A stretch of DNA of 64,000 nt from a virus: positions 1 to 64,000 of the IMG/VR virus record IMGVR_UViG_3300023223_001361. One strand, written 5' to 3'. Below are positions 37,450 through 58,914 of the stretch, piece after piece; within the stretch, counting starts at the first letter, position 1; the number at the start of each line of letters is the position of its first letter. The position numbers were made by a program, and so were the translations under genes. Under the pieces are notes generated by a model that did no database searches, was not told where the DNA came from, and saw nothing but the letters and a program-made list of their open reading frames with translations.

Positions 37450-38514
37450 ATGAAAATAGCTGTAATCGCGGATACACATTGCGGTGCTCGTAATGATACA
37501 GAAGTATTTAATGCTCATTTTCTTAAATTTTTTCATGAGCAGTTTTTTCCATATCTAGATGAGCATAATATCAAAACTATTATTCATCTTGGCGATGTAT
37601 TTGATCGTCGTAAATATGTTAATCTAAAAACTTTAAGTAGTTGGAAGAATAATGTGTTTGATGCCCTTGAAGAAAGAGGTATCGAAATGCATATTATTAT
37701 TGGAAACCATGATACTTATTTTAAGTCAACTAATGAAGTGAATTCCCCAACAGAACTTTTATCCGAATATTCCAATATTATAGTTCACACAAAACCAACA
37801 ACTATTCAAATAGATGGTTTGGATATTTGTATTTTGCCATGGATCAATGATGATAACTTAGACGATACAGTAAAAGAAATAGAAACCACCAAAGCTGAAA
37901 TCGCAATGGGTCATCTTGAGATACTAGGTTTTGAACAAGTAAAAGGACATATTAATTATGATAAAGGGTTTGACAGAACTCAGTTTAATAAATTTGATGC
38001 TGTATTCAGTGGCCATTATCATCATCGGTCTAATGGGGGGAATATTTGGTATGTCGGATCTCCTTATGGTTTTGTGTGGTCTGATTGGAATGATAGTAGA
38101 GGCTTTCATATACTTGAAACGAAATCCAGAGAAATGGAATTCATTGAAAATCCGAATGAAATCTTCCACAAAATATATTATAGAGATGGTGCAAAAACTT
38201 ACGAAACCATAAGAGATACAGATTATTCTTATATTAAAGATTGTTATGTAAAAGTTATAGTAGAAGAGAAAACAAATCCTTATTTGTTTGAACAGTTTCT
38301 TGATAAACTTTATCAACAAAATCCTGCCGACTTAAATGTAGTTGATGGATATGATGATTTGGATGATGAAGATCCTGAAGCAATTGATCAAGCTAAAGAT
38401 ACTTTGACTATTCTTCGGGAATATATTCATCAGATAGATGTGAGTGAAGATAAGAATGAATTAATAACTCTTATGCATGAGTTGTATAGTGAAGCTGCCG
38501 ATATAGAGGTGTAA
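37450..38514 (+). CDS. gp47: Recombination nuclease subunit gp47 (Mre11-like)
   Basis: 354 residues. Metallophosphoesterase motifs: ADTHCG (residues 7-12), HLGDVFDRR, IIGNHDTY, MGHLE, and GHYHHRSNG. These match T4 gp47, which with gp46 forms the Mre11/Rad50-type complex that resects ends for recombination-dependent replication. The C-terminal acidic segment probably contacts gp46. The size is close to T4 gp47 (339). Eight bases after gene 55. Confidence 0.96.
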   Translation: MKIAVIADTHCGARNDTEVFNAHFLKFFHEQFFPYLDEHNIKTIIHLGDVFDRRKYVNLKTLSSWKNNVFDALEERGIEMHIIIGNHDTYFKSTNEVNSPTELLSEYSNIIVHTKPTTIQIDGLDICILPWINDDNLDDTVKEIETTKAEIAMGHLEILGFEQVKGHINYDKGFDRTQFNKFDAVFSGHYHHRSNGGNIWYVGSPYGFVWSDWNDSRGFHILETKSREMEFIENPNEIFHKIYYRDGAKTYETIRDTDYSYIKDCYVKVIVEEKTNPYLFEQFLDKLYQQNPADLNVVDGYDDLDDEDPEAIDQAKDTLTILREYIHQIDVSEDKNELITLMHELYSEAADIEV

Positions 38515-38515
38515 T

Positions 38516-38848
38516 GTGGATAATACTATTAGTATACACGTTAAAGAAAAGGAAATTTGTCGAATCGATGAACTTGGAATTTGGTTAACAAAATATTCTT
38601 GGTGTCAAGATCCAAAGACTGTTGCTGACTTCCTGTTTGATGTTTTTGAACGGTGTTGGCATGGAAGCTTTCAAAGTAATCCAATATTAAATCGAACAGT
38701 TGATATGAGAGTTGAAAATAAACTAGTATGTTTAATTAGTAGGGATAATATATGGTTCAATTCTGATTTAGTTATACCAGATTACTTTACCGAAGAAACA
38801 ATACGACTATTACAAAAGAGATGGAGAGAAACTTTATCTAAAAAGTAA
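38516..38848 (+). CDS. Hypothetical protein between genes 47 and 46
   Basis: 110 residues from a GTG at 38516, which is two bases after the gene 47 stop; the ATG at 38514 is in another frame and gives only 24 residues. Mixed alpha/beta with WCQDPKTVADFLFDVFERCW. T4 also has small genes between 47 and 46, but no homology is claimed. Function unknown. Confidence 0.6.
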   Translation: MDNTISIHVKEKEICRIDELGIWLTKYSWCQDPKTVADFLFDVFERCWHGSFQSNPILNRTVDMRVENKLVCLISRDNIWFNSDLVIPDYFTEETIRLLQKRWRETLSKK

Positions 38849-38855
38849 TTATACT

Positions 38856-40568
38856 ATGATTTATTTTGAAAAGATTCGATGGAAGAACTTTCTAGCTACT
38901 GGAAATCACTTCATCGAAATCGAACTTGACAAATCTAAGACCAGTATTCTACTTGGTCCGTCTGGGAGTGGTAAGAGCACGTTGCTCGACGCAATGTGTT
39001 TTGCTTTATTTGGTCGTGCCTTCCGAGCGATAAACAGAGATCAATTAGTCAACTCAGTCAATGAAAAGGATTGCTTAGTTGAAATTGAATTCAAAATTGG
39101 AACCAAAGAATATGTGGTGCGACGTGGCATCAAACCAAATATTTTTGAAATCTATCGTAATGATAGAATGATTGAACAGGATGCAAGCGTTCATGATTAC
39201 CAGATGAAGTTAGAGAAACAGATATTAAAGTTTAATCGTAAGACATTTACCCAAATTGTTGTATTGGGAGCATCAAATTTTACACCATTTATGCAATTGA
39301 AGCCTTCAGATAGAAGAATTATTATTGAGGAACTTCTGGATATTGAAATTTTTTCCGTAATGCATAATCTTTTGAAAGAAAGAATTTCTAAGTTGAAAGA
39401 AGAAACTACAGAAAATGAAATGCAAATTAAGATGCTTGAAAAAGAAATAGAATTGCATGAGCAGTATGTTAAAAGTTTAGCAAGCGACAAGAATTCAAAG
39501 ATCGAAAAAAATGAAGAAGATATAGTCGAGAATACTTTACAGATACAAGCATTGCAGAAAATTATTGATGATTCTAAGGATATATTGGATGGTTTAAAGA
39601 AAGATATCGAGGATCAAAAAGAGGTTGATAAAAATATCCAAAAGTTTTATGATTTAGAAGATCAAATCGAACGTAATATCAAGAAGACTAAAAAAGAAAT
39701 AACTTTCTATGAAGATCATGATGATTGCCCAACATGTAATCAACCAATTAATGAACAGTTTAAGTTAGAGGAAATAGGAAGAAAAGAAAATAAGCTTTCT
39801 GATTTTGCTGCTGGTATTAAACAGATTCAAGATAATATATCAACACTCCAAAAAAGATTATGTGATATTTATTCTACTAAAGGTGTAATAAATGACAAAG
39901 AAAGGGAAAGAACTAGAAATATATCTTCTGTAAATGCTTTAAGAAACTATGTCAAGAAATTGGAAGATGAAAACGAAGAGTTAAAGAAACCAAAGAAATC
40001 AATTTCAGATGAAAAGGATAATATTAGAAGTATGTATGGTGATAAAGTTGAGTGTACAGATAAAGCACAATCTTTTTCATATAAAAAAGCTTTGTATGAT
40101 ACCACCTCAAATCTTCTAAGAGATGGTGGAATTAAGTCTAGGATTATAAAACAATACTTGCCTTTAATTAACAAATATGTTAATAAATATCTTAATTCCA
40201 TGAATTTTTTTGTCAGTTTCCATTTGGATGAAGAGTTTAATGAGAGTATAAAATCTAGAGGAAGAGATATTTTTTCTTATGAAAACTTTTCCGAAGGAGA
40301 AAAACAAAGAATTGATTTAGCTTTACTCTTCACTTGGCGTGCAATAGCACGTATGAAAAACTCAGTAAATACTAATTTGCTTATCATGGATGAAGTATTT
40401 GATAGTTATTTGGATAATGCTGCAACTGAGAATGTTATTGAGTTATTAAACTCAGATTTGTTTCGCAATACTAATATTTTTGTAATTTCACATAAAGATA
40501 CTATTGCTGATAAATTTCATCGATTAATTCGTTTTACTAAAGTTAAAAGTTTTAGCAGGGTAGAATAA
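38856..40568 (+). CDS. gp46: Recombination nuclease subunit gp46 (Rad50-like)
   Basis: 570 residues. Walker A GPSGSGKST (34-42); long coiled-coil arms interrupted by the zinc-hook CPTC (C291, C294); ABC signature FSEGEKQRIDLAL; Walker B LLIMDEVFDSYLD; H-loop VISHKD. This is the T4 gp46 architecture (560 residues) and pairs with gp47 to process DNA ends. It overlaps the next gene (TAATG). Confidence 0.97.
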   Translation: MIYFEKIRWKNFLATGNHFIEIELDKSKTSILLGPSGSGKSTLLDAMCFALFGRAFRAINRDQLVNSVNEKDCLVEIEFKIGTKEYVVRRGIKPNIFEIYRNDRMIEQDASVHDYQMKLEKQILKFNRKTFTQIVVLGASNFTPFMQLKPSDRRIIIEELLDIEIFSVMHNLLKERISKLKEETTENEMQIKMLEKEIELHEQYVKSLASDKNSKIEKNEEDIVENTLQIQALQKIIDDSKDILDGLKKDIEDQKEVDKNIQKFYDLEDQIERNIKKTKKEITFYEDHDDCPTCNQPINEQFKLEEIGRKENKLSDFAAGIKQIQDNISTLQKRLCDIYSTKGVINDKERERTRNISSVNALRNYVKKLEDENEELKKPKKSISDEKDNIRSMYGDKVECTDKAQSFSYKKALYDTTSNLLRDGGIKSRIIKQYLPLINKYVNKYLNSMNFFVSFHLDEEFNESIKSRGRDIFSYENFSEGEKQRIDLALLFTWRAIARMKNSVNTNLLIMDEVFDSYLDNAATENVIELLNSDLFRNTNIFVISHKDTIADKFHRLIRFTKVKSFSRVE

Positions 40569-40765
40569 TGGATTTGCCAATAAAATATACTGTGTTTATC
40601 ACTACCAATAAAATAGGTAGGAGAGCTGTTCATTGGTCAAGTAGCAATCCAAAAGCAAAGGTAACACGTTCAACAATTGCTAAAGATATTCAACAGCTTT
40701 TACCATCGTGGGAAGAAACATGGGGAAAGATATTAAAGATTGAAATAGTTAGGGGTGATTACTAA
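40568..40765 (+). CDS. Small hypothetical protein downstream of gene 46
   Basis: 65 residues, basic, starting and ending in TAATG overlaps with genes 46 and the AAA+/M41 gene. Sequence features: VFITTNKIGRRAVHWSSSNPKAKV, then a helical WEETWGKILKIEIV. No family recognised. It is part of the same translationally coupled series. Confidence 0.55.
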   Translation: MDLPIKYTVFITTNKIGRRAVHWSSSNPKAKVTRSTIAKDIQQLLPSWEETWGKILKIEIVRGDY

Positions 40766-42741
40766 TGGATACAAAAAAGATAGCAGAAATCGAAGCGAAG
40801 CAAGAGCATCTCAAATGGGTCAACAAAAAACTTAAGGAACACTTTGTTGGGATTGACAATATTATAGATGATGTCACAGATAGTCTTGAAGCTTGGTATG
40901 TCATGCCAGAACTTCAGATGCGACCTACTGTTATTTGTTTGTGGGGTATGACTGGTGTCGGCAAAACTGATCTAGTAAATCGTTTGGTAAAACTTCTTGG
41001 TTGGGATGATTCCTTTTTAAAGATTGAACTAGGGGATAGGACAAATTATTTCAAATCTATTCTTTCTCAGTTGAAAGATCAGAGTAATATTATGAATGGT
41101 ACTTCTGGTATTCTTTTATTTGATGAGATACAAAAATTTAGAACTGTTGATGAAGACAGAAAAGAAAAACCTGATGCCGGCTATAGTGATTTTTGGGAAA
41201 TGCTTTCTGATGGTCATATCGACCAACGTCATATTATTAAGGATATTATTGATACCCTTTCAGCAAAGATACGTCAACAGGAAAAAAAGAAAGCTGAAAA
41301 AGCTTTAGGGGAAAACAAAGAAACAAGAAAGAAAGGAATAAATCAGAGTCTTCGAGAGATAATTGGCGGTGGTGATGATGAAGAAGATGTTGAGGAGGAT
41401 GTTGATGTGAAAATATATAGTTACGATGCTGAAAAAATAATTTATTATCTTGGTTTAGATAAGATGCATAGTTCTGATATTACTGGCATTGGTGAAAAAG
41501 AATTGGTAGAATTTTGCAAAAAATTATTGAATAGCTCAAACAAACACTTCTTCGATATGTCAAAGACATTAGTATTTATTTCGGGAAATTTGGATGAAGC
41601 ATACTCATTTGCAAAAACTGTTCAGGATGCTGATACACATGCAGATATTTATCATGAGCTTTCAAAAAAGATTAGTTTTCTTGATATTAAGGAAGCATTA
41701 TTGCAAAGATTTCGTGCTGAGCAGATAGCAAGATTTGGGAATTTTCATTTAGTATATCCTTCTTTATCCAGTAAATCTTATAAGGAGATCATTAAAAGAA
41801 GATTAAAAACAGTTTCGAATAACGTTTTGGATAAACATAATATCGATGTTCAATATGATGATAGTATATACAAATATATTTATGATAATGGTGTTTTTCC
41901 CACACAAGGTACACGCCCTGTGTTTTCTACGATACAAATGGTTGTAGAGAATAATCTTCCAAAGATTTTATTAAATTGTTTCAAAACTTCTATTCTTAAT
42001 GTAAAACTATTTTCCGAAGATGGGAAAATTGTTGCAAAGTATGGTGATAAGACTTTACATATTCCTTATGTTGGTCAAATTGATTCAATTCGGAAGAAGA
42101 AAACACTAGATCAACTTGCGATGGTTAGTGTGCATGAAGCTGGTCATGCTCTTGCAATAGGTAAACTCTTTGGTGTTGCACCATCACAGATTAGCGCACG
42201 AGCCTCTAAGTCTGATGTTGATGGATTTGTTTTCATGCCTTATATTAAAATGTCAAAGGGCAATATATTGAAAAAGATTATATGTGCTTTAGCTGGTCGA
42301 GTAGCAGAAGAATTTTATTTTAAAGATGAAATGATATCTCCTGGTGCTGCTGAAGATATTGCACACGCAACAGAGATGGCTTGTCTCATGATGAACGATT
42401 GGGCAATGACAGAATGTAAAGATGGTATTCCTTATAGAACTGGTACAAGAAATTTTAATGAAAGAGGTAATTATATCCCAACACAGGATGAAATGTATTC
42501 CGATTCAACATTTATTATAAGAGAATCATATAAAAAAGCACAACAAATTATTGAAGAGCATTCGGAGTTGTTGAAAGATTTGGTTGAAATATTGATTCGA
42601 GATACTACTATTAGTCCTGAAAATTTTGTTATATTATGTGATGCTAATGGTATGGATAACATTCGAGTTATGAAAGATGGTGAAGAAATCTCTGACAGTT
42701 ATTCGGATGCCTTAAAAGTGAAGCATGATCGCAAAAACTAA
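40765..42741 (+). CDS. AAA+ ATPase fused to an FtsH-type (M41) zinc metallopeptidase
   Basis: 658 residues. The N-terminal half is a Clp/HslU-like AAA+ module: HFVGIDNIIDDV, Walker A GMTGVGKT (61-68), Walker B ILLFDEI (116-122), a charged insert (QREKKKAEKALGE type, near 175-215) and a sensor region FGNFHLVYP/TQGTRPVFS. The C-terminal half has HEAGH (457-461) and SPGAAEDIAHATEMA (residues 525-539), where D531 is the expected third zinc ligand, as in FtsH/M41 peptidases. No transmembrane segment is present, unlike FtsH. The protein probably unfolds and degrades particular proteins in the cytoplasm. Overlaps the DruA-like gene by 17 bases. The ATPase is not of the FtsH subtype, so the fusion is unusual. 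Confidence 0.8.
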   Translation: MDTKKIAEIEAKQEHLKWVNKKLKEHFVGIDNIIDDVTDSLEAWYVMPELQMRPTVICLWGMTGVGKTDLVNRLVKLLGWDDSFLKIELGDRTNYFKSILSQLKDQSNIMNGTSGILLFDEIQKFRTVDEDRKEKPDAGYSDFWEMLSDGHIDQRHIIKDIIDTLSAKIRQQEKKKAEKALGENKETRKKGINQSLREIIGGGDDEEDVEEDVDVKIYSYDAEKIIYYLGLDKMHSSDITGIGEKELVEFCKKLLNSSNKHFFDMSKTLVFISGNLDEAYSFAKTVQDADTHADIYHELSKKISFLDIKEALLQRFRAEQIARFGNFHLVYPSLSSKSYKEIIKRRLKTVSNNVLDKHNIDVQYDDSIYKYIYDNGVFPTQGTRPVFSTIQMVVENNLPKILLNCFKTSILNVKLFSEDGKIVAKYGDKTLHIPYVGQIDSIRKKKTLDQLAMVSVHEAGHALAIGKLFGVAPSQISARASKSDVDGFVFMPYIKMSKGNILKKIICALAGRVAEEFYFKDEMISPGAAEDIAHATEMACLMMNDWAMTECKDGIPYRTGTRNFNERGNYIPTQDEMYSDSTFIIRESYKKAQQIIEEHSELLKDLVEILIRDTTISPENFVILCDANGMDNIRVMKDGEEISDSYSDALKVKHDRKN

Positions 42742-44008
42742 GAAAGATTATGATGAAGAATTTCAAGAGTGGTTAAAAAAGAATCCCACTAGTGAAGTTC
42801 CTGATATAGATTTTCATGATACTCGTGAGAAAGTCATAGATATATTGTCTTATGTTTCTCAGATGACTGTTCAGGAATATACTTTGTATGAGAAGTGGCA
42901 AGAAATTCGGAGAAAGTATCCGACAGAAATTATGAGTACTTTAGATCATGATAAATCAACAGAAGTTCTTTTGGATCCTAAAAAGATTTTAGAAGTTAAA
43001 AAATGTAAGAATAGTATTTGGATTCCAGAATCACCTGAAGATTATTTAAAGCTTCAACCGGAAATTCTTTACACAAATAATGGGGAAGAAGCTGATCATC
43101 TTATGACAGAGTGGTCTAATTTGAGGTTATTGATTCACACGATGCCTTATAATAGTGCGGTCGGTCGTAATATGCATTTCATTATCAAAGATAAAGTTTC
43201 AGAAAAATATCTTGGTATTATTTGTATCTCTTCAGATTTTATGGATCTAACCTGTAGAGATAATTATATTGGCTGGACCAGACAGATTAAGACAGATGAG
43301 CGTATGATTAACCATATAGCGATAGGTTCAACTATCGTTCCAACACAACCACTTGGATTTAACTTCTTGGGTGGGAAATTATGCGCTTTACTTTGTCTAT
43401 CTGATGAAGTTCAAACTGCTTGGAAAGACTCATATAATCAGATTTTAGTAGGCTTGACAACTACTTCATTATATGGTACACTATCACAATATAACAGTTT
43501 ACAATACTGGAACAAGCGAGGAGCTACAAAGGGTAGCATCGGATATAATCCGGGTCGCCATTTAAGAAAACAGATGATGTACTGGCTCCAAAAGAATGAG
43601 CCAAGAATGTATTGGGATTGGTATCATGCCATGAATGAAAAGAATCAAAGATCGAAACGGGATTACCGGAATCGAGCTTTGCTTTTTGCTTATAGAAAGT
43701 TTAATATACCAAAGGAATTAATACATACCAAGCATCAACGGGGCGTATATTTTTCCCCTTTGTATAATAATACTTGTGATTTTTTGAGAAAGGAAATAGA
43801 TAAGGATGGTTTGGTGAAGAGAATGGATACTTCCGTCGATCATTTGGTTCAGGTTTGGAAAGATAGATATGCATCAAAGAGAGCAGAAAAGATGGTAAAG
43901 CAAGGAAGATACAATACTGAGACTCTTTTTTATGGTGATTTGATTTATATGGATAATTTTGAGGACGTTAAGGCTAAATATCTTTCTAAAGTAGGTATTG
44001 ATAGATGA
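42725..44008 (+). CDS. DruA-like (DUF4338) protein
   Basis: 427 residues. The central region, YLGIICISSDFMDLTCRDNYIGWTR, MINHIAIGSTIVPTQPLGFNFLGGKLCAL and YNQILVGLTTTSLYG, has the conserved pattern of DUF4338, the family of DruA in Druantia anti-phage systems, also seen in phage genomes and suggested to be GNAT-like. A charged N-terminal 150 residues and a basic C-terminus follow phage-type versions. Druantia partner DruE is absent. It starts inside the end of the AAA+/M41 gene, so the two are co-translated. The biochemical role of DruA-like proteins is not settled. Confidence 0.7.
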   Translation: MIAKTKKDYDEEFQEWLKKNPTSEVPDIDFHDTREKVIDILSYVSQMTVQEYTLYEKWQEIRRKYPTEIMSTLDHDKSTEVLLDPKKILEVKKCKNSIWIPESPEDYLKLQPEILYTNNGEEADHLMTEWSNLRLLIHTMPYNSAVGRNMHFIIKDKVSEKYLGIICISSDFMDLTCRDNYIGWTRQIKTDERMINHIAIGSTIVPTQPLGFNFLGGKLCALLCLSDEVQTAWKDSYNQILVGLTTTSLYGTLSQYNSLQYWNKRGATKGSIGYNPGRHLRKQMMYWLQKNEPRMYWDWYHAMNEKNQRSKRDYRNRALLFAYRKFNIPKELIHTKHQRGVYFSPLYNNTCDFLRKEIDKDGLVKRMDTSVDHLVQVWKDRYASKRAEKMVKQGRYNTETLFYGDLIYMDNFEDVKAKYLSKVGIDR

Positions 44009-44100: not shown

Positions 44101-44174
44101 GCGCTTGTAGTATAATGGCATTATGTCTGCCTTCCAAGCAGAAGACCACAGTTCGATTCTGTGTTGGCGCTCCA
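44101..44174 (+). tRNA. tRNA-Gly (anticodon TCC)
   Basis: 74 bases including encoded CCA. Anticodon stem TCTGC/GCAGA encloses CTTCCAA, giving anticodon TCC. T arm CACAG-TTCGATT-CTGTG is perfect. Acceptor GCGCTTG/TTGGCGC with U discriminator as in bacterial tRNA-Gly, but has a T-T mismatch at pair 6-67 and wobble at 5-68 and 7-66. The D-loop contains GG. Likely functional; T4 also carries tRNA-Gly(TCC). Confidence 0.92.
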
Positions 44175-44214
44175 ACTAAATAGCAATGTAATAAAATTAA
44201 CTTAGAGGAATAAA

Positions 44215-44445
44215 ATGGCAGAAGGAAAACATGCTTTCGCAATTACGCCGGATGATGGAAACGATTTGCCGGAAGTTGCTTTGAAATTATATGTTGATGT
44301 TGGTGGAGATGTTGTTGTTACTTTGTCTGCTGATACTGTTTCGATAACTTTATCAGTTGCTTCTAATTCGTTTATAGATGATTTGCGGATTAAGAAGGTT
44401 CATGCAGCTGGAACAACTGCAACTGGTTTAATCGGATTTAACTAA
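44215..44445 (+). CDS. Spike-base-like small structural protein, copy 1
   Basis: 76 residues. FAITPDDGNDLPEVALKLYVDVGGDVVVTLSADTVSITLSV and the final KKVHAAGTTATGLIGF follow the RCAP_Rcc01079-type spike-base protein family known from gene transfer agents and phages. Paralogous to the next gene along its entire length. RBS AGAGGA. A structural protein placed between tRNAs in an accessory block is unusual. A late-promoter-like CTAAATAG occurs at 44177. Confidence 0.7.
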   Translation: MAEGKHAFAITPDDGNDLPEVALKLYVDVGGDVVVTLSADTVSITLSVASNSFIDDLRIKKVHAAGTTATGLIGFN

Positions 44446-44455
44446 GGAGAAAATA

Positions 44456-44692
44456 ATGGGAGATTCAAGAAATTCGGTAAGCATCACTCCTAATGATGGT
44501 GCCGATTTAACAAATCTTGTTAATAAAATTCGTGTAGATGGGCTTGCTGGAGATGTTGTTGTTACACTTGCTGGTGATTCAACCTCACTAACTTTTGCTC
44601 TTGCTGCTGGAGAATTATTAGAAGGATTTCTAATTAAGAAAGTACACGCAACTGGAACAACTGCAACTGTTTTGGTTGGATTTTACGAGTAA
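44456..44692 (+). CDS. Spike-base-like small structural protein, copy 2
   Basis: 78 residues, preceded by AAGGAG. VSITPNDGADLTNLVNKIRV, GDVVVTLAGDSTSLTFALAAGE and IKKVHATGTTATVLVGF align with the neighbouring 76-residue protein, showing a tandem duplication. Family resemblance to spike-base proteins suggests a capsid or tail-spike attachment role, by inference. Confidence 0.7.
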   Translation: MGDSRNSVSITPNDGADLTNLVNKIRVDGLAGDVVVTLAGDSTSLTFALAAGELLEGFLIKKVHATGTTATVLVGFYE

Positions 44693-44769
44693 ATAATGAA
44701 AAATGTATCTTGTCAATTTTGGTTACTATTGTTACTCGCGTAAGCGAGATAATATAGTTACGATCAAAT

Positions 44770-44845
44770 GGCAGGGTACGCAAACGGTATAGCGGTTAGT
44801 TTTAGAAACTAATGATTGTGGGTCCGAATCCCTCCCCTGCTACCA
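44770..44845 (+). tRNA. tRNA with anticodon TAG (Leu by codon), class I variable arm
   Basis: 76 bases ending in encoded ACCA. Anticodon stem TTAGT/ACTAA around TTTAGAA gives anticodon TAG, reading the Leu codon CUA. D stem CGC/GCG with GG in its loop. Acceptor GGCAGGG/CCCTGCT pairs fully with G1-U72 wobble. T arm GTGGG-TCCGAAT-CCCTC has one T-T mismatch and C at position 55. The variable region is only five bases (TGATT), whereas bacterial tRNA-Leu is normally class II with a long arm, so the charging identity is uncertain. A CTCGC/GCGAG hairpin lies upstream at 44735-44748. Confidence 0.8.
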
Positions 44846-44974: not shown

Positions 44975-45003
44975 TTGACAAGCTTTATGGGGTATGAGAT
45001 AAT
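44975..45003 (+). promoter_or_regulatory. Sigma70-type promoter upstream of the VWA operon
   Basis: TTGACA (44975-44980), 17-bp spacer, GATAAT (44998-45003), followed by AGGGAGG RBS and the ATG at 45028. Exact -35 consensus. Confidence 0.85.
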
Positions 45004-45027
45004 GATAATGTAATAGGGAGGAAACGA

Positions 45028-45123
45028 ATGAAAAACGACAAAATATTCCCGATTTTTTTGGTGATTTTTGATGTGACAATAATTCTTTTTAATGTTGTTG
45101 CACTAGCAATAACGGTTTATTGA
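45028..45123 (+). CDS. 31-residue membrane peptide leader gene
   Basis: A strong AGGGAGG RBS lies six bases before the ATG. After MKNDK the sequence is continuously hydrophobic (IFPIFLVIFDVTIILFNVV), predicting one transmembrane helix. It ends two bases before the ATG of the VWA metallopeptidase gene, so its translation may couple to it. The excellent promoter-RBS arrangement argues that it is real. Confidence 0.6.
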   Translation: MKNDKIFPIFLVIFDVTIILFNVVALAITVY

Positions 45124-45125
45124 TA

Positions 45126-47315
45126 ATGTCTAAAGTTGATATATCAGTAAAAGATATTCTTGCTCAGCTTATGGCAACAGAAAAACTTTCGATTGAACAT
45201 CGTTCTGGTGCTCATACTGCTGCTTTTGATTTAAAAAACAGAATTCTCATTTTGCCAATTTGGAAAGAAATGGATGACCATCTTTATAATATGTTGATAG
45301 GTCATGAAGTTGGTCATGCTCTTTATACTCCTCAAGATTACATTGAAGAAGTGAAGAAAAATGCTTCACTTAGTTCGTATCTCAATGTTGTTGAGGATGC
45401 TAGAATCGAAAAAATCATCAAAAATGATTTTCCAGGAATTCGACGATCTTTTAGAGAAGCTTACCAACAATTAAATAAGAGAGATTTCTTTGGTAGACAA
45501 AAAACAGGTAATCTTAAGAAATATGATTTAATTGATCGAATCAATCTCCATTTCAAATTGAATTCTTACATCTCTGAAGAGATTGCTTTTACTGATGAAG
45601 AAAAGTTTTGGGTTGAAAAAGTGGATTCGTGTAAAACTTTTTCTGATGTTGTTAGAGTAGCAAAAGAACTTTTTAAATACCAAAAAGAACAAAACCAACA
45701 ACAACAAAAAGCCAAAATTTCAGAAGATGGTGATGGAAAAATTGATTCAGGAACTATGGAAAAGGATAATTCTGAAGAAAATAGTTCCACTTCTGATAGT
45801 TCTGAAGAATTTCAAGATTCTGAAACCAATCAATCCAAAGCTGATCAGGATTCTGATGAAAAAGATAAGAATTTGCAAGATCCCTTTTCCGAAACAGATC
45901 AAAATCTTCAGGAAAATTTAAAAAATCTACGAGATGAATTTGCTGATGAATATGCCTATGTTGATTTTCCAAATCTCTCAAAGGAAGAAATTAGTAATTA
46001 TATAATTCCTTTCCAGACAGTTCATAGACAAATTCGAGAGCATTACATTAAAGAATATGAAAGAAATCTTTCTTATACTGAATCTCATCGTGGAGAAAAT
46101 TGTTGTTGCTTAAATGAACTTAAAGAGGCAGAAAATAGACTTTCTCAATTTAAATCGGAGAGTATTAAAGTTGTTAATTATCTTGTCAAAGAATTTGAAA
46201 TGAAAAAAGCAGCACATATCCATGACAAAACGAGGATTTCTAAAACTGGCGTTATTGATATGAATAAACTTTTTTCTTACAAATATAATGACGATATTTT
46301 TAAAAGAAGTTCAGTTGTTTCCACAGGAAAAAATCATGGTATTTTAATTTTTTTTGATATGTCAAATTCGATGTCTTCTCATATGGCAGGAACTATAGAA
46401 CAAATGATAAATCTCGTTTTGTTCTGTAAGAAAGTTCAAATCCCTTTTGAAGTTTATGGTTTTACGACTTGCGATAATAATTCTCGAATTGATTCAGCCC
46501 CAAACGTACCAAAGAAGGAAATTATTTTAGGAAACCATTTTACATTAAGGAATTATTTTTCTCATCGAATGAATTCTGGACAATTTCAAAATGCTTTAGT
46601 CAACATGATGGCAATTTTACATTATTATGAAATCGCAAAGGAGTATCCCACAAAAAAATATAGTTTACCTACTTCTGAACAATTACACTATACTCCATTG
46701 AATCAAACAATAATTATTGCTACTCATCTTGTTCCACTCATTCAAAGGAAATATAATATTGAGATAATGAATTGTATCTTCATTACTGATGGATGTCATT
46801 ATACAGGTGGTCAAGATTTGAGATTTATAGATTATGATGGTTTTTCGAAATCTTTATGTCAATATCAGAAAATCTTCATCAAAAAAGATAATAAACAATA
46901 TGAATCGAATTCGCGGGAAGATAATTTTACAAAAATCTATTTTGAAATATTAAAAAAATCTTGTCAAACAAATAATATTGGCTTCTTTATCCTCCAATCT
47001 GGTAAAAGTGGATTTGAATCTGTGATTTCCCAAAAAGATAATAATCTCCAAAATAAAAGTAAAACAGAAAAGAAAGATATCATTAATAAGTTATATGATC
47101 AATATCAAAATGATGGTTTCTTTAATGTTCAAACTGCTGGCTATGATGATTATTTTGTTGTTCCGGGTGGTGATCAGTTAAGAACTCATCAAGGTTATAT
47201 CCCAGTCAAGCCAGGAGCTTCACGACTCAAGATAACGAAAGCATTCAAAAAGAGTCAAGCTATTATGATAACTAGTAGAGTTATGCTTTCCAAATTTATC
47301 GACAGGATAGTATAA
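45126..47315 (+). CDS. Zinc metallopeptidase-VWA domain protein (CobT-like annotation)
   Basis: 730 residues from ATG 45126. HEVGH at residues 60-64 with a downstream NVVEDARIEK motif (acidic third ligand) forms an N-terminal gluzincin-like domain. Residues about 195-270 are a low-complexity Gln/Ser/Glu/Asp linker. A C-terminal VWA domain contains the MIDAS D411-x-S413-x-S415 (FFDMSNS) and the later FITDG metal-contact. This layout resembles phage proteins annotated as peptidase or CobT-like in T4-like marine phages. With the MoxR/CobS-like ATPase at 47648 it forms a MoxR-VWA pair. True cobaltochelatase activity is unlikely. Confidence 0.8.
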   Translation: MSKVDISVKDILAQLMATEKLSIEHRSGAHTAAFDLKNRILILPIWKEMDDHLYNMLIGHEVGHALYTPQDYIEEVKKNASLSSYLNVVEDARIEKIIKNDFPGIRRSFREAYQQLNKRDFFGRQKTGNLKKYDLIDRINLHFKLNSYISEEIAFTDEEKFWVEKVDSCKTFSDVVRVAKELFKYQKEQNQQQQKAKISEDGDGKIDSGTMEKDNSEENSSTSDSSEEFQDSETNQSKADQDSDEKDKNLQDPFSETDQNLQENLKNLRDEFADEYAYVDFPNLSKEEISNYIIPFQTVHRQIREHYIKEYERNLSYTESHRGENCCCLNELKEAENRLSQFKSESIKVVNYLVKEFEMKKAAHIHDKTRISKTGVIDMNKLFSYKYNDDIFKRSSVVSTGKNHGILIFFDMSNSMSSHMAGTIEQMINLVLFCKKVQIPFEVYGFTTCDNNSRIDSAPNVPKKEIILGNHFTLRNYFSHRMNSGQFQNALVNMMAILHYYEIAKEYPTKKYSLPTSEQLHYTPLNQTIIIATHLVPLIQRKYNIEIMNCIFITDGCHYTGGQDLRFIDYDGFSKSLCQYQKIFIKKDNKQYESNSREDNFTKIYFEILKKSCQTNNIGFFILQSGKSGFESVISQKDNNLQNKSKTEKKDIINKLYDQYQNDGFFNVQTAGYDDYFVVPGGDQLRTHQGYIPVKPGASRLKITKAFKKSQAIMITSRVMLSKFIDRIV

Positions 47316-47355
47316 ATGTTTGAAATTATTGAATAAATTTTAAATGGTTAAATGT

Positions 47356-47384
47356 TTGACAGATGTTTATGAATATGACATAAT
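47356..47384 (+). promoter_or_regulatory. Sigma70-type promoter
   Basis: TTGACA (47356-47361), 17-bp spacer, CATAAT (47379-47384), 24 bases before the ATG at 47408 with AAGGAG RBS. Confidence 0.82.
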
Positions 47385-47407
47385 ATAAGAGTAAGAAGGA
47401 GATAAAA

Positions 47408-47635
47408 ATGTCACTCAATTTAAAATATGTTAAAGTAGGTGATTTGGTCCAACTGGTTGCTCAATCTGATGCTTATTCAAATCGTATTAAACGACAAATG
47501 GCTTCAGTTGAAAAAATTACTAATAGGATTTATCTTTTTGCCCTTCGGAATAGTTTAAGAAATTTGAGTTTTAGTAATGTGATTTTTGATGTGAAATCTT
47601 ATGGGAAAGATTGGTATCTTGAAAATATTGAATAA
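47408..47635 (+). CDS. Small hypothetical protein before the MoxR-like ATPase
   Basis: 75 residues, strong AAGGAG RBS. Begins SLNLKYVKVGDLVQLVAQSDAYSNRIKRQMASVEKI, which is compatible with a small beta barrel (KOW or SH3-like pattern), but no family is asserted. Twelve bases separate it from the ATPase gene; both share the 47356 promoter. Confidence 0.6.
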   Translation: MSLNLKYVKVGDLVQLVAQSDAYSNRIKRQMASVEKITNRIYLFALRNSLRNLSFSNVIFDVKSYGKDWYLENIE

Positions 47636-47647
47636 TTTGGAGGTATA

Positions 47648-48844
47648 ATGCGTTTAGCTAAAAGAAATAAAGTTCATGAAGAGAGAAAAAATTTTGCTGA
47701 GCTTGCTTATGAAGAATATGGTTCCCCAATTAACAGAAATCAACTTGAATATTTTTGTGCTAAACATGGTTACAGTTGGCCTTCTTGGTTAGTGAAAGGT
47801 CATGAATATCGAGCTGGTTACGGTTTATATTATTTACCTGTAGGAGATTTTGAAAGCGCTTTACCTGAAAAATCAGTTTCAAAAAAACAAAAAGTAGAGA
47901 GTATTACAACTTCAATTGAAAATTATACCAATTTAGAAGAAAAGATAATCCCGGATAAAGATCCTCTTTATGTTCCTTTTGGTCAATTTGAGTTAGTTGA
48001 AAAAATAGTTGCTTCAGGAATTTACTATCCCTTATTTGTCACTGGTCTTTCTGGTAACGGGAAAACTTTTATGATTGAACAGGTTTGTGCCCAAACGAAA
48101 AGGAATCTTTTCCGAGTTAATATTACAATTGAAACTGATGAGGATGATTTACTAGGTGGTTTTCGGTTGATTGATGGTGAAACAGTTTGGTTTAATGGTC
48201 CTGTTATTAAAGCTATGCTTACTGGATCAGTTTTACTTTTAGATGAAATTGATCTTGCAAGTTCTAAAATTCTTTGTTTGCAACCAGTTCTTGAAGGTAA
48301 AGGTGTTTTTCTCAAAAAGATTAATCAATTTGTGAAACCTGCTCCTGGTTTTACTGTTCTCGCAACAGCTAATACTAAAGGTAAAGGTTCTGAAGATGGT
48401 CGTTTTATTGGAACTAATATTTTAAATGAAGCTTTTCTTGAACGCTTTCCTGTAACAATTGAGCAAGAATATCCTGGTCGATCCGTAGAAGTCAAGATTT
48501 TGAGACGTGTTTTAAAAAGTCACAATATTAATAATCTCGATTTTGCAAAGAGACTTGCAGAATGGGCAGATGCAATTCGTGATACATTTTTTGATGGTGT
48601 GATTGATGAATTAGTTTCAACTCGTCGCCTGGTACATATCGTTAATGCTTATGCGATTGTTAAAGATAAAGAAGAAGCAATCAGACTTTGTATCAATCGT
48701 TTTGATGCTAAGACGAAAGAAGCTTTCATGCAACTTTGGTCAATGTTTAATCTGTCCCCGGAAGAATTAGAAAGAAATCAACAAAGTGAAAGAGATGAAG
48801 AATGGCTAGAAGAAACGGAAAAAGCAACAACTATTCCTTTTTAA
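47648..48844 (+). CDS. cobS: MoxR/CobS-like AAA+ ATPase
   Basis: 398 residues. Walker A GLSGNGKT (133-140), Walker B LLLDEID (196-202), ETDEDDLLGGFRLIDGETVWFNGPVIKAM and FTVLATANTKGKGSEDGRF with FLERFPVTIEQEYP (arginine-finger region) are typical of MoxR/CobS ATPases. Homologues in marine T4-like phages are usually labelled cobS. The N-terminal 100 residues contain a NRNQLEYFCAKHGYSWPSWL helix-turn-helix-like segment. It is next to the VWA metallopeptidase, the usual MoxR partner type, suggesting a chaperone or metal-insertion machine. Confidence 0.85.
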   Translation: MRLAKRNKVHEERKNFAELAYEEYGSPINRNQLEYFCAKHGYSWPSWLVKGHEYRAGYGLYYLPVGDFESALPEKSVSKKQKVESITTSIENYTNLEEKIIPDKDPLYVPFGQFELVEKIVASGIYYPLFVTGLSGNGKTFMIEQVCAQTKRNLFRVNITIETDEDDLLGGFRLIDGETVWFNGPVIKAMLTGSVLLLDEIDLASSKILCLQPVLEGKGVFLKKINQFVKPAPGFTVLATANTKGKGSEDGRFIGTNILNEAFLERFPVTIEQEYPGRSVEVKILRRVLKSHNINNLDFAKRLAEWADAIRDTFFDGVIDELVSTRRLVHIVNAYAIVKDKEEAIRLCINRFDAKTKEAFMQLWSMFNLSPEELERNQQSERDEEWLEETEKATTIPF

Positions 48845-49341: not shown

Positions 49342-50034
49342 ATGAAAATTTCTTCTGATACTCTTACCGTCCTAAAGAATTTTGCTTCTATTAATCAAGC
49401 TTTGCTGGTGAGAAAAGGAGACGTTCTACAAACTATTTCCCCACAAAATATTATTGTTTCTGAAGCTATTGTTGATGACTCCTTTCCACAAGATTTTGCA
49501 ATCTATGATTTAAATAAATTGATTAATGTTGAAAGTTTGCTTGAAGAACCTGATTTCTCATTTAAGAAAACTAATTTACATATTGTTAGCGGAAATCGTT
49601 CAGTAAATTATATTTATGCAGATCCTTCTAACATTCATACTTTGCCTGAAGGTTTGAAAGAAAAACTTGCAAGTTACCTTTCAAAAGCTGAGATTTCTTT
49701 TAAGTTTTCTGAAGATGATTTTTCTGGAGTTCTAAAAGCTTCTTCGGTAATGGGTTTTGAACATCTTGTAGTTGTTGGAAATGGTGAAGTTATTAGTCTT
49801 GTTGCTGAATCATCTGGCCCTAAGAAAAAGACACAAGGAAATTTTGTTATTTCTCTTCAAGATACAACAATTCATACATTTAAGATTGTTTTTAATATTG
49901 AGCATTTAAAACTTCTGCCTGGAAATTATGATGTCAATATTTCATCAAAAGGTATTGGTCATTTTCAGAACAAGGATGTACAAGTTGAATATTGGATTAC
50001 AGCTCAGAAAGAACTAACCGAATTTGGAGAATAG
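49342..50034 (+). CDS. gp45: Sliding clamp gp45
   Basis: 230 residues, the T4 gp45 size (228). MKISSDTLTVLKNFASINQALLVRKGDVLQTIS, DFAIYDLNKLINVESLLEEPDF and the C-terminal GIGHFQNKDVQVEYWIT are characteristic. Trimeric clamp giving polymerase processivity and activating late transcription through gp55/gp33. Its promoter is not evident in the short gap after the terminator, so it may be read through or use a weak site. Confidence 0.95.
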   Translation: MKISSDTLTVLKNFASINQALLVRKGDVLQTISPQNIIVSEAIVDDSFPQDFAIYDLNKLINVESLLEEPDFSFKKTNLHIVSGNRSVNYIYADPSNIHTLPEGLKEKLASYLSKAEISFKFSEDDFSGVLKASSVMGFEHLVVVGNGEVISLVAESSGPKKKTQGNFVISLQDTTIHTFKIVFNIEHLKLLPGNYDVNISSKGIGHFQNKDVQVEYWITAQKELTEFGE

Positions 50035-50035
50035 A

Positions 50036-50308
50036 ATGACTGACACAAAACAACTAAGCGACGAACAACTGGCGGAATTCAAGTCTTATGTGCCTGAAGG
50101 GCCTATCGACAATGTTAGTGTTGATATTAGATACGCGCACGGCGCGATCAGGGAGCTCCTCACAGAAATCTCCCGACTGCGGAAGACGGGCACAAAACTA
50201 AACGAGGTAGCAGCAGAAGCATATCAATACATCGGTTCCAACGGTGAAGGATGGTCGGAAAAACAAACAGTAGAGTTGTTGGACAAGCTTACGGAACAAA
50301 TCAAATGA
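50036..50308 (+). CDS. G+C-rich hypothetical protein between genes 45 and 44
   Basis: 90 residues from ATG 50036, preceded by GGAG in the end of gene 45. Helical, with FKSYVPEGPIDNVSVDIRYAHGAIRELLTEI. Bases 50101-50220 contain 63 G+C of 120 (about 52%), compared with 18 of 60 (30%) in a typical line of gene 45, and codons such as GCG, CGC and CTC are used. This suggests recent acquisition. Overlaps the next gene by four bases. Confidence 0.65.
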   Translation: MTDTKQLSDEQLAEFKSYVPEGPIDNVSVDIRYAHGAIRELLTEISRLRKTGTKLNEVAAEAYQYIGSNGEGWSEKQTVELLDKLTEQIK

Positions 50309-50565
50309 CTGACAAAAAACCAGAAGTTACACCAAAAGAAACTGTTCAAGAAAATATGGTGCGTCCCAGACCACCAGTAGGAACTTATAATTCTTATGAG
50401 AATGAATTTTTAACTGTTTTGCATCTTCTTAAATATAATCTACATCTTAATGCTAAAGCAATTGTATTTGCTGGTCTTTTAGCTAAAACATCTACTACTG
50501 AAGAAGCTGTTGAGGCTACTCAAAGAGTTATGGAAGCAATGAGATTGAAAGACGACGTAAAATAA
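50305..50565 (+). CDS. Small hypothetical protein upstream of gene 44
   Basis: 86 residues from ATG 50305 (ATGA overlap). Acidic/Lys-rich start, then NEFLTVLHLLKYNLHLNAKAIVFAGLLAKTSTTEEAVEATQRV. Base composition returns to A+T-rich in its second half, unlike the preceding gene. No family recognised. Confidence 0.6.
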   Translation: MTDKKPEVTPKETVQENMVRPRPPVGTYNSYENEFLTVLHLLKYNLHLNAKAIVFAGLLAKTSTTEEAVEATQRVMEAMRLKDDVK

Positions 50566-50596
50566 TCATTTGGCAACTTGAACGGAAAAATTTATT

Positions 50597-51541
50597 ATGT
50601 CTAAGCGTGAATCCTTTTTGTGGACCGAGAAATATCGACCTGCCACAATATCCGATTGTATTTTACCCAAACATATTAAAGATGTATTTCGTGGATCACT
50701 GAAAAGTGGTGAGATTACTAACTTTCTACTTTGTGGTAAACCGGGCATGGGAAAGACCACTGTAGCAAAAGCTCTTTGTTCTGAATTGAAACTTGATTAT
50801 CAGTTTATCAATGGTTCAGAACAAAACGGCATTGATGTTCTAAGAACTATGGTGAAGGATTTCGCTTCTTCTGTAAGTCTTATCAGTGATAAAAAGGTTG
50901 TCATTATTGATGAAGCGGATTATATTACTGCTAATGCTCAAGCTGCTTTGCGTGGAATGATTGAAGAATTTTCATCTAATTGTACTTTTATCTTTACTTG
51001 TAATTTTGAGAATAAAATCATTGACGCTATACACTCTAGATGTGCTGTTGTTCAGTTTGTCGTGAGAGATAAAGATAAACTATCTCTTATACAGGATTTC
51101 TACAAAAGAACTTCTCATATTTTAGAGAAAGAAAATGTGGAGTTTAATAAGGAAGTTCTAGGTAAAGTAATTGTTGATAATTTTCCAGATTTCCGAAGAA
51201 CTATCAATGAGCTACAAAGATTTGCTACAGCAAACGGAAAGATTGATGAAGGTATTTTAGCTCAAACGTCAAACATCAATATTGATAGTTTGTTTAAAGC
51301 GATCACAAATAAAAAATATGGTGATTTACGTGAGTGGGTTGTTGAATCTCTTGATAATGATTCGACAAAGATTTATCGACAAATCTATGATGCACTTGCG
51401 GATTATTTGGAGCCTGGTAGCGTGCCAATGGCAGTTATGATTCTTGGAGATTATCAATATAAAGCTGCATTTGCGGCAGATCACGAAATCAATTTACTAG
51501 CTTGTTTAACTGAAATTTGGAAAGATTGTGAGTTTAAGTAA
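50597..51541 (+). CDS. gp44: Clamp loader large subunit gp44
   Basis: 314 residues, matching T4 gp44 (319). LWTEKYRPATISDCILP, Walker A GKPGMGKTTVAKAL, Walker B VVIIDEADYI, sensor 1 FIFTCNFENKI with SRC arginine finger (DAIHSRCAVVQF), and sensor 2 FPDFRRTINELQRF are RFC/AAA+ motifs. It loads gp45 with gp62. TAATG overlap with the next gene. Normally gene 62 follows directly; here several accessory genes intervene. Confidence 0.96.
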   Translation: MSKRESFLWTEKYRPATISDCILPKHIKDVFRGSLKSGEITNFLLCGKPGMGKTTVAKALCSELKLDYQFINGSEQNGIDVLRTMVKDFASSVSLISDKKVVIIDEADYITANAQAALRGMIEEFSSNCTFIFTCNFENKIIDAIHSRCAVVQFVVRDKDKLSLIQDFYKRTSHILEKENVEFNKEVLGKVIVDNFPDFRRTINELQRFATANGKIDEGILAQTSNINIDSLFKAITNKKYGDLREWVVESLDNDSTKIYRQIYDALADYLEPGSVPMAVMILGDYQYKAAFAADHEINLLACLTEIWKDCEFK

Positions 51542-57432: not shown

Positions 57433-58914
57433 ATGCGTTTTTTTACGAATTGTTTATGTATTCAGAATAAGATATATTTACGTGAAATCGTGGATGGCAA
57501 CCGCAACAAGCGCAAGCTCAATTATCAACCTACTCTATTTTTGCCAGCTAACGAAGAATCCAAGTGGAAAACTCTTGATGGTAAAGATGTCAAACCGATG
57601 CAATTCTCATCTATTAAAGATTCTAGGGAATTCATATCTCAGTATAAAGATGTAGAAAATTTTGAAATATATGGGAATACGAATTATCATTATTGTTTTA
57701 TGGGTGATGAATATCCTGGAAAGATAGAATATAATTTTGATGATTTGATTGTTTGTAATTTAGATATTGAGGTGGCAAGTGAGAATGGTTTTCCTACTGC
57801 CGATCTTGCACAAGAAGAAGTTATAGCAATCACAATGAAAGTAAAAGATTTATTTTTTGTGTTTGGCTGCGGTAATTACAAAAATTATAATCCGAAAGTG
57901 ACTTACTTTCAATGTGAAGATGAAGTTGAATTACTTTCAAGATTTCTTGATATTTGGGAAAAAATTTCTCCAGATATCATTACTGGATGGTATATAGAAG
58001 ATTTTGATATACCATATCTTGTTAATAGAATTACTAAATTGCTTGGTAATCAAGAAGTATCAAGACTTTCTCCTTGGAAATGGGTTAAGGAGAAACGGTA
58101 TTTTTATCAAGGAAAAGAAAAGATTTTGTATAATTTGGTAGGAATTTCTTGTCTGGATTATTTGACACTTTATAAGAATAAAAGTTTGAATCCTAAAGGT
58201 GCAAATAAAGAAAATTATAAGTTGAATACGATTGCTCATCTTGAACTTGGTGAAAAGAAGCTTTCCTATGAGGAATACGGAAATCTGTATAACTTATATA
58301 AGAACAATTATCAGAAGTTTATTGATTACAATATCAAGGATGTTGAGCTTGTTGATAGATTGGAAAATAAATTGAAATTTATTGAGTTAGTTGTGGGGGT
58401 CGCATATGATGCGAAAGTAAATTTTGATGATGTTTTATATCAAGTGAGAACTTGGGATACAATTATATATAATCACTTAAAAGATAGAAATATTGTTATT
58501 CCACAAAAAGAAAGACATGTTAAGAAACAACAATATGCTGGAGGGTATGTCAAAGAACCCCAGTGTGGTATGCATGATTGGGTTATGTCTTTTGATTTGA
58601 ATTCATTGTATCCTCATTTAATTGCTCAATTTAATGTATCACCCGAAACAATTCGCCCGGAAATGTTTAAAGTGGTAAATGTAGAAGGTTTGCTGAAGGG
58701 GAGTTTTGATTTATCAGATTTAAAGAATAAGAAAGTTACAATGGCAGCAAATGGTCACCATTTTGATACTACTAAAGAAGGATTTTTACCAAAGATTTTA
58801 ATGGAAATGTATTCCCTAAGAACTGTTTATAAGAACAAGATGCTTAATGCTGAAAAAAAGTTGGAAAATATCAATACTGAAATGCGCAAAAGAAAATTAG
58901 AAGTAAATGAGTAA
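57433..58914 (+). CDS. gp43A: DNA polymerase gp43, N-terminal half (exonuclease plus palm motif A)
   Basis: 493 residues. Family B polymerase: Exo I LDIEVASENG (D111, E113), Exo II TGWYIEDFDIPYLVNR, Exo III YNIKDVELVDRL, then motif A SFDLNSLYPHL with catalytic D388. It ends after the first fingers helix (MYSLRTVYKNKMLNAEKK...MRKRKLEVNE). Motifs B and C are encoded separately from 60693. The halves must assemble to give a polymerase. The stop overlaps a downstream 57-residue frame. Split gene 43 with mobile DNA is known in some Aeromonas T4-like phages. Confidence 0.95.
   Translation: MRFFTNCLCIQNKIYLREIVDGNRNKRKLNYQPTLFLPANEESKWKTLDGKDVKPMQFSSIKDSREFISQYKDVENFEIYGNTNYHYCFMGDEYPGKIEYNFDDLIVCNLDIEVASENGFPTADLAQEEVIAITMKVKDLFFVFGCGNYKNYNPKVTYFQCEDEVELLSRFLDIWEKISPDIITGWYIEDFDIPYLVNRITKLLGNQEVSRLSPWKWVKEKRYFYQGKEKILYNLVGISCLDYLTLYKNKSLNPKGANKENYKLNTIAHLELGEKKLSYEEYGNLYNLYKNNYQKFIDYNIKDVELVDRLENKLKFIELVVGVAYDAKVNFDDVLYQVRTWDTIIYNHLKDRNIVIPQKERHVKKQQYAGGYVKEPQCGMHDWVMSFDLNSLYPHLIAQFNVSPETIRPEMFKVVNVEGLLKGSFDLSDLKNKKVTMAANGHHFDTTKEGFLPKILMEMYSLRTVYKNKMLNAEKKLENINTEMRKRKLEVNE

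What the first reader, a model, noticed from the sequence alone, without database searches (positions are those of the whole stretch)
44975..48844. Metallopeptidase-VWA plus MoxR/CobS-like ATPase: a chaperone-type system mislabelled as cobalt chelatase
MIDAS (D411-x-S-x-S) and HEVGH share one polypeptide, and the MoxR-type ATPase is next door. MoxR-VWA pairs are known to act in protein maturation or metal insertion. No other cobalamin genes are visible. Each unit has its own consensus sigma70 promoter, and a 31-residue membrane peptide precedes the VWA gene, suggesting early expression and possible membrane recruitment.
Basis: partly seen in the sequence, partly recalled or inferred. Interest (0 to 1): 0.62.

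Follow-up and report, generated by a model that had tools for sequence, protein, structure and literature searches.

The report
Phage AAA-ATPase and metallopeptidase-VWA pair
A marine T4-like phage carries a well-known two-gene module, usually labelled as a vitamin B12 cobalt chelatase, that looks instead like an ATP-driven protein-remodelling ring with a partner carrying an intact zinc-protease site, the same kind of pair that many conjugative plasmids carry next to DNA-recombination genes.

Summary
One 729-residue protein (45126-47315) carries a zincin site (H60-E61-x-x-H64, third ligand E90) and a complete MIDAS (D411/S413/S415/T523/D555). The AAA+ ATPase (47648-48844) follows it. Two near-consensus extended -10 promoters exist (0.007 expected). 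The motifs are invariant in about 101 phage homologues; T523 has one exception. The genes travel together: 42/42 and 34/35 viral loci.

The label 'CobS/CobT' fails membership tests. Scores are 73 vs cutoff 558 bits (CobS) and 12 vs 759 (CobT). HExxH is absent in 20/20 true CobT, and no CobN lies on the contig. The phage AAA lies outside the CobS clade.

The MoxR-VWA chaperone reading is well supported but already published for jumbo phages (PMC7824862). It is a core pair of cyano- and pelagi-myophages, so this is a new member of a known kind.

What this work adds is that homologous AAA + HExxH-VWA pairs sit on IncC, IncHI and other plasmids, often with ssb-bet-exo or RecT genes. In T4-likes they sit between gp46 and gp45. 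Plasmids have no virions and E. coli has no CobN, so neither published role can be general. Best guess: a protein-remodelling and clipping machine serving DNA metabolism. The client is unknown. Early timing and membrane recruitment are unsupported.

The parts
44975..45003 (+). promoter-like site, TTGACA-N17-GATAAT with TG before the -10, upstream of the VWA unit
   Evidence: chance expectation
45028..45123 (+). 31-aa hydrophobic ORF with Shine-Dalgarno, 2 nt before the VWA start; possible leader/translational coupling; not conserved
45126..47315 (+). metallopeptidase-VWA protein, 729 aa, phrog_459 ('peptidase')
   Evidence: (E 4.7e-174)
45126..45734 (+). N-terminal zincin-like domain (residues 1-203; HEVGH 60-64 on helix 51-67, E90 on helix 80-101)
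46335..46923 (+). VWA domain with complete MIDAS (D411, S413, S415, T523, D555), about residues 404-600
47356..47384 (+). promoter-like site, TTGACA-N17-CATAAT with TG before the -10, upstream of the AAA unit
47408..47635 (+). 75-aa ORF between the two genes, no confident family, no relatives in the related loci
47648..48844 (+). MoxR/CobS/NorQ/midasin-type AAA+ ATPase, 398 aa, phrog_249; Walker A GLSGNGKT 133-140, Walker B LLLDEID about 196-202
37450..40568 (+). upstream context: gp47 and gp46 recombination nuclease subunits
   Evidence: order as in annotated relatives
49342..51541 (+). downstream context: gp45 sliding clamp and gp44 clamp loader

Best explanation
The two proteins form an AAA+ ring and MIDAS-adaptor machine of the MoxR/NorQ/midasin kind. 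The AAA protein makes an ATP-driven ring. The VWA protein is its adaptor: its MIDAS binds an acidic residue of a client (or of the ring), and its N-terminal zincin domain can cut a peptide that is presented or pulled. ATP turnover remodels a client protein complex, with proteolytic clipping. Because homologous pairs recur on phages and conjugative plasmids beside recombination and replication genes (gp46/47 and gp45/44 in T4-likes; ssb-bet-exo on IncC; RecT-YqaJ; dnaE/ssb), the most likely client is a protein complex on or around the element's own replicating or recombining DNA. Shown: both motifs intact and invariant, the domain folds, obligate pairing, lack of CobN on the contig, homology to plasmid pairs. 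Inferred: ring assembly, zinc binding, peptidase activity, the client, and the DNA-metabolism role.
For: HExxH, E90 and MIDAS invariant in 101 homologues at about 30% identity. N-domain model pLDDT 93 with HExxH and E90 on adjacent helices; its nearest solved folds are zincins (selecase, ArdC, PprI/IrrE, ZMPSTE24, M61), all weak, E 0.06 or higher. VWA closest to NorD VWA in NorQD complexes and to the MDN1 MIDAS/UBL complex. AAA matches midasin, CobS and NorQ chains. Obligate linkage 42/42 and 34/35, VWA before AAA within 3 kb in 147/152; equal counts in 460/459 isolate records. Full-length profile match to plasmid proteins, 489 columns, E 1.8e-29. Plasmid neighbourhoods with ssb-bet-exo, RecT/YqaJ, primase, topoisomerase or dnaE. 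Place between gp46 and gp45.
Against: No biochemical data on either protein. Neighbourhood is indirect: T4-like synteny is inherited, and replication genes are common on large plasmids. T4-like phages lack the DUF3150 gene that accompanies most of the plasmid pairs, so the systems differ in composition. The R27/IncHI group has D in place of the third ligand and L124 has HExxxH, so the zinc site is not universal on plasmids. Foldseek E-values for the N-domain are weak. Several phage/chromosomal AAA and VWA sequences sit on long branches.
Confidence: 0.45

Rival explanations
1. Viral CobST: the pair joins host CobN to make an active cobaltochelatase and raise cobalamin supply for the infection (proposed in PMC8651126).
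For: Homology to CobS (TIGR01650, 73 bits) and, through plasmid proteins, to CobT. Prochlorococcus genomes do carry CobN (11 of 16 over the cutoff), so a partner exists in cyanobacterial hosts. Published proposal.
Against: Far below the CobS and CobT equivalog cutoffs. The zinc site is absent in 20/20 true CobT but invariant in phages, so selection keeps something CobT lost. The T4-like AAA lies outside the group that holds CobS and its nearest kin (99/96). No CobN/ChlH gene on this contig or 9 others. No ribonucleotide reductase large subunit on this contig. The same kind of pair is on E. coli plasmids, and E. coli rings for no CobN-family gene.
Confidence: 0.12
2. Virion assembly chaperone with peptidase: the pair processes structural proteins, as proposed for group 2.2 jumbo phages (PMC7824862).
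For: A MoxR-VWA pair without peptidase was reported to assemble the tail of Acidianus two-tailed virus; a peptidase fits maturation cleavage. Part of the T4-like cyanophage core.
Against: Homologous pairs are on conjugative plasmids that make no virions. The genes lie in the replication/recombination cluster, not with the head and tail genes at 19.7-30.3 kb, and have sigma70-like promoters.
Confidence: 0.18
3. Metal or cofactor insertase/activase for a phage or host enzyme, as NorQD, CoxDE or CbbQO do.
For: Closest VWA structures are NorD in NorQD complexes; AAA close to NorQ/CbbQ.
Against: No candidate metalloenzyme conserved beside the pair across phages and plasmids. Does not explain the invariant zincin site.
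Confidence: 0.1
4. Host takeover or counter-defence: the pair cuts or dislodges a host protein (polymerase, nucleoid or defence protein).
For: Shared by phages and plasmids, which face the same defences; weak N-domain fold kin include the antirestriction protein ArdC of plasmid R388. Strong sigma70-like promoters would suit early action.
Against: Near-universal and single in T4-like marine phages with steady synteny, unlike most patchy counter-defence genes; no target known.
Confidence: 0.15

Closest known systems
phrog_459 + phrog_249, the core 'peptidase' + 'CobS' pair of T4-like cyanophages and pelagiphages (Kyanoviridae)
   Same: full-length match, E 4.7e-174 and 1.8e-111; same order, same place between gp46 and gp45
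   Different: diverged: VWA protein about 33% and AAA about 52-57% identical to isolates; a DruA gene and an AAA-M41 protease gene inserted upstream
MoxR AAA+ / metallopeptidase-vWA pair of group 2.2 jumbo phages (PMC7824862)
   Same: same domain architecture and pairing, as described there
   Different: authors propose virion assembly; the cited accession numbers were not compared here
AAA + DUF3150 + VWA modules of IncC, IncHI1/R27, Comamonas, P. putida and Pelobacter plasmids and of Pseudovibrio/Allochromatium elements
   Same: HExxH (with exceptions), third-ligand helix, MIDAS, AAA partner; profile match over 489 columns
   Different: carry DUF3150, often ssb-bet-exo or RecT-YqaJ; gene order usually AAA first
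Cobaltochelatase CobS/CobT
   Same: homologous AAA and VWA; CobT keeps the 'E-x-x-R' helix remnant
   Different: CobT has no HExxH; works with CobN; phage proteins far below cutoffs
NorQD and midasin (MDN1/Rea1)
   Same: AAA ring plus MIDAS domain logic; closest solved VWA folds and strong AAA matches
   Different: no metallopeptidase domain; different clients

Membership tests
Cobaltochelatase subunit CobS (TIGR01650) | score above the equivalog cutoff (558.6 bits) | tested here: not met
   73.4 bits; a true CobS scores 637.6
Cobaltochelatase subunit CobS (TIGR01650) | falls inside the CobS clade | tested here: not met
   CobS clade 100/100, T4-like clade 100/98 outside it
Cobaltochelatase subunit CobT (TIGR01651, PF06213, PF11775) | score above the equivalog cutoff (759 bits) / Pfam match | tested here: not met
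   12.3 bits; no Pfam match
Cobaltochelatase subunit CobT (TIGR01651, PF06213, PF11775) | degenerate N-domain without zinc site, as in 20/20 true CobT | tested here: not met
   HExxH + E90 intact
Cobaltochelatase complex | CobN partner available | tested here: inconclusive
   none on this contig or 9 other pair-bearing viral contigs, but many Prochlorococcus genomes have CobN; the host of this phage is unknown
Cobaltochelatase complex | cobalt insertion into hydrogenobyrinate diamide | not testable with these tools
   needs enzymology
MoxR-type AAA+ / VWA chaperone pair | AAA+ of the MoxR/chelatase/midasin group with intact Walker motifs | tested here: met
   AAA_5 1.8e-17; G133, G136-N137-G138-K139-T140, D199-E200 conserved in at least 97% of 150
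MoxR-type AAA+ / VWA chaperone pair | linked VWA protein with complete MIDAS | tested here: met
MoxR-type AAA+ / VWA chaperone pair | physical complex and ATP-dependent client remodelling | not testable with these tools
   needs purified proteins
Zincin (gluzincin-like) metallopeptidase | HExxH on the active-site helix plus downstream Glu ligand, zincin fold | tested here: met
   motif invariant, helices 51-67 and 80-101; best fold hits are zincins but weak
Zincin (gluzincin-like) metallopeptidase | zinc binding and proteolytic activity | not testable with these tools
   needs biochemistry
phrog_459 / phrog_249 (T4-like cyanophage core pair) | full-length match and conserved synteny gp46 - pair - gp45 | tested here: met

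The most novel reading that the evidence does not exclude
The phage pair belongs to a large, uncharacterised class of mobile-element machines (phages, conjugative plasmids, integrated elements): a AAA+ ring plus a MIDAS adaptor with a working zinc protease that clears or remodels proteins on the element's DNA during replication and recombination. The true cobaltochelatase CobST would then be a branch of this class whose protease died.
Probability: 0.3. Interest if true: 0.75.

Novelty: new member of a known kind. Interest (0 to 1): 0.45.

Why it matters
'cobS' is routinely counted as a cobalamin auxiliary metabolic gene in viral surveys. If the pair is a protein-remodelling protease machine, a widely repeated ecological claim (phages boosting vitamin B12) is wrong for most of these genes. 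A module conserved both in T4-like marine phages and on IncC and IncHI plasmids would be a shared, testable function of mobile DNA. The invariant protease residues give a direct genetic test.

Tried and rejected
Cobalamin context: no CobN/ChlH family gene on this contig or on nine other pair-bearing contigs, no ribonucleotide reductase large subunit on this contig, so no B12-using target was seen there. Membrane recruitment by the 31-aa peptide: not conserved. Cyanobacterial host: psbA absent; host left open, and absence on an incomplete contig proves little. DUF3150 analogue between VWA and AAA in phages: P-SSM2 has a pyrimidine dimer glycosylase-like ORF and syn9 nothing significant there. 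Direct phage-CobT profile match: only 101 columns around the VWA, so homology to CobT rests mainly on the plasmid intermediates. Literature on DUF3150: none in the library; searches for cyanophage cobS expression timing found nothing.
Full report
WHAT IS THERE. The window is the first 64 kb of a 160,399-base IMG/VR virus record. Portal, major head, sheath, terminase, gp43, gp44 and related genes make it a T4-like myovirus. The ORF at 45120-47315 most likely starts at ATG 45126 (729 aa). The AAA+ ORF is 47648-48844. Pfam finds AAA_5 in it (1.8e-17) and nothing in the VWA protein. PHROGs name them phrog_459 'peptidase' (4.7e-174) and phrog_249 'porphyrin biosynthesis' (1.8e-111).

MOTIFS ARE UNDER SELECTION. 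In 101 phage-type homologues only about 30% identical to the window protein, H60, E61, H64, N87, E90, D91, R93, D411, S413, S415 and D555 never change, and T523 changes once. In the AAA protein the Walker A and B residues are conserved in at least 97% of 150 sequences.

FOLD. AlphaFold2 on an 80-sequence alignment gave mean pLDDT 83.7 for the whole VWA protein and 93 for the N-domain, with HExxH on helix 51-67 and E90 on helix 80-101. Foldseek against the PDB places the VWA nearest to NorD in NorQD complexes and to the human MDN1 MIDAS/NLE1-UBL complex. The N-domain gives only weak matches (E 0.06 and up), but its best matches are zincins: selecase, ArdC, PprI/IrrE, ZMPSTE24, an M61 aminopeptidase. 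By sequence the AAA protein matches midasin, CobS and NorQ chains.

THE TWO GENES TRAVEL TOGETHER. In isolate phages the cyano-, pelagi- and marine-virus counts are 460 for the VWA gene and 459 for the AAA gene. In IMG/VR, 42 of 42 AAA-seeded loci with at least 4.5 kb upstream hold the VWA gene, and 34 of 35 VWA-seeded loci with at least 4.5 kb downstream hold the AAA gene (exception L056). In 147 of 152 same-strand pairs the VWA gene precedes the AAA gene by less than 3 kb. The pair sits between gp46 and gp45 in P-SSM2, syn9 and Ochrobactrum phage OC, and gp46 and gp45 are found on 75/87 and 68/75 related loci long enough to show them.

NOT A COBST EQUIVALOG. Scores are 73.4 bits against a CobS cutoff of 558.6 and 12.3 against a CobT cutoff of 759; the true pair of Pseudovibrio scores 637.6 and 1005. 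In 20 of 20 true CobT sequences the HExxH is gone while the following helix survives as a remnant. The trees put T4-like AAA and VWA proteins in their own clades. The CobS clade is nearest to a Rhizobium phage and an Acinetobacter plasmid (99/96), and CobT groups with the same two plus Vibrio phage Saratov-12 (86/94). All three of those partners still have HExxH. The trees are unrooted and some branches are long. The contig has no CobN/ChlH-family gene, nor do nine others. Against my own reading: many Prochlorococcus genomes do have CobN (11 of 16 over the cutoff), so the CobN-hijack idea of PMC8651126 is not excluded for cyanophages.

RELATIVES ON PLASMIDS. A Pseudovibrio element protein of this kind (L112) finds 1333 plasmid records, 1178 typed conjugative. 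Seven neighbourhoods were read. IncC: AAA, hypothetical, ssb, bet, exonuclease, DUF3150, VWA. R27: AAA, DUF3150, VWA, toprim. Comamonas: AAA, ssb, exonuclease, DUF3150, VWA. P. putida: VWA, MoxR, DUF3150, topoisomerase. Pelobacter: primase, MoxR, DUF3150, VWA. K. grimontii: AAA, DUF3150, VWA. Acinetobacter: VWA, AAA, dnaE. The Pseudovibrio and Allochromatium elements carry RecT-like and YqaJ-like ORFs close to the AAA and VWA genes (these two names are my reading of the sequences); DUF3150 is confirmed for Pseudovibrio. A Rhizobium phage has the pair with dnaE and ssb. Profile comparison joins the phage and plasmid VWA proteins over 489 columns (E 1.8e-29) and the plasmid proteins to CobT over 529 columns. 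Exceptions: R27 and K. grimontii have D for the third ligand, P. putida has HExxxH.

WHAT IT PROBABLY DOES. MoxR-VWA machines share a logic: the MIDAS binds a client and the AAA ring remodels it (reviewed in PMC7159879). The invariant zincin adds cutting. Two roles have been published for phage versions: cobalt chelation with host CobN (PMC8651126) and virion assembly (PMC7824862). Neither can be general if the plasmid pairs do the same job, because plasmids make no virions and E. coli, which hosts them, gives no CobN-family match (it is among the control genomes). The recurring neighbours are recombination and replication genes, so I favour a DNA-metabolism client. This step is inference from neighbourhood.

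EXPRESSION AND PEPTIDE. Two promoter-like sites of 11/12 with extended -10 lie at 44975 and 47356; 0.007 are expected in the region. They make independent expression plausible; timing is untested. The 31-aa hydrophobic ORF has a Shine-Dalgarno and ends 2 nt before the VWA ATG, which suggests translational coupling. It is not conserved (3 of 76 loci have any hydrophobic short ORF there), so membrane recruitment is not supported.

VERDICT. A real, well-conserved, already described pair. The added value here is the protease-site contrast with true CobT and the link to plasmid modules.

Noticed in passing
window 40765-42741: A protein with a ClpB-D2-like AAA+ domain fused to an FtsH-type M41 zinc protease; no full-length relative in isolate phages and none found in IMG/VR by pattern search.
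   Followed up: partly
window 42725-44008: A DruA-domain (PF14236) protein; homologues recur near the pair in at least 15 related viral loci.
   Followed up: partly
L118 and L127-L145: In 19 of 20 alphaproteobacterial genomes the locus of the true CobS/CobT pair carries a J-domain-like ORF, directly upstream of CobS in L118; Caulobacter rings for CobT but not for the CobN family, hinting that CobST may also act without CobN in cells.
   Followed up: partly
window 57433-58914 and 60693-61793: DNA polymerase gp43 is split into two ORFs matching the N- and C-terminal parts of the profile, with two ORFs of 255-277 aa and a tRNA-Asn between.
   Followed up: no
window 44101-44845: Two similar small ORFs (76 and 78 aa) lie between tRNA-Gly and tRNA-Leu just upstream of the pair.
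   Followed up: no
L056 8980-11145: A VWA-metallopeptidase gene with no AAA partner found within 9 kb, the one exception among 35.
   Followed up: no
window 30461: The only other 11/12 extended -10 promoter-like site on the + strand of the window.
   Followed up: no
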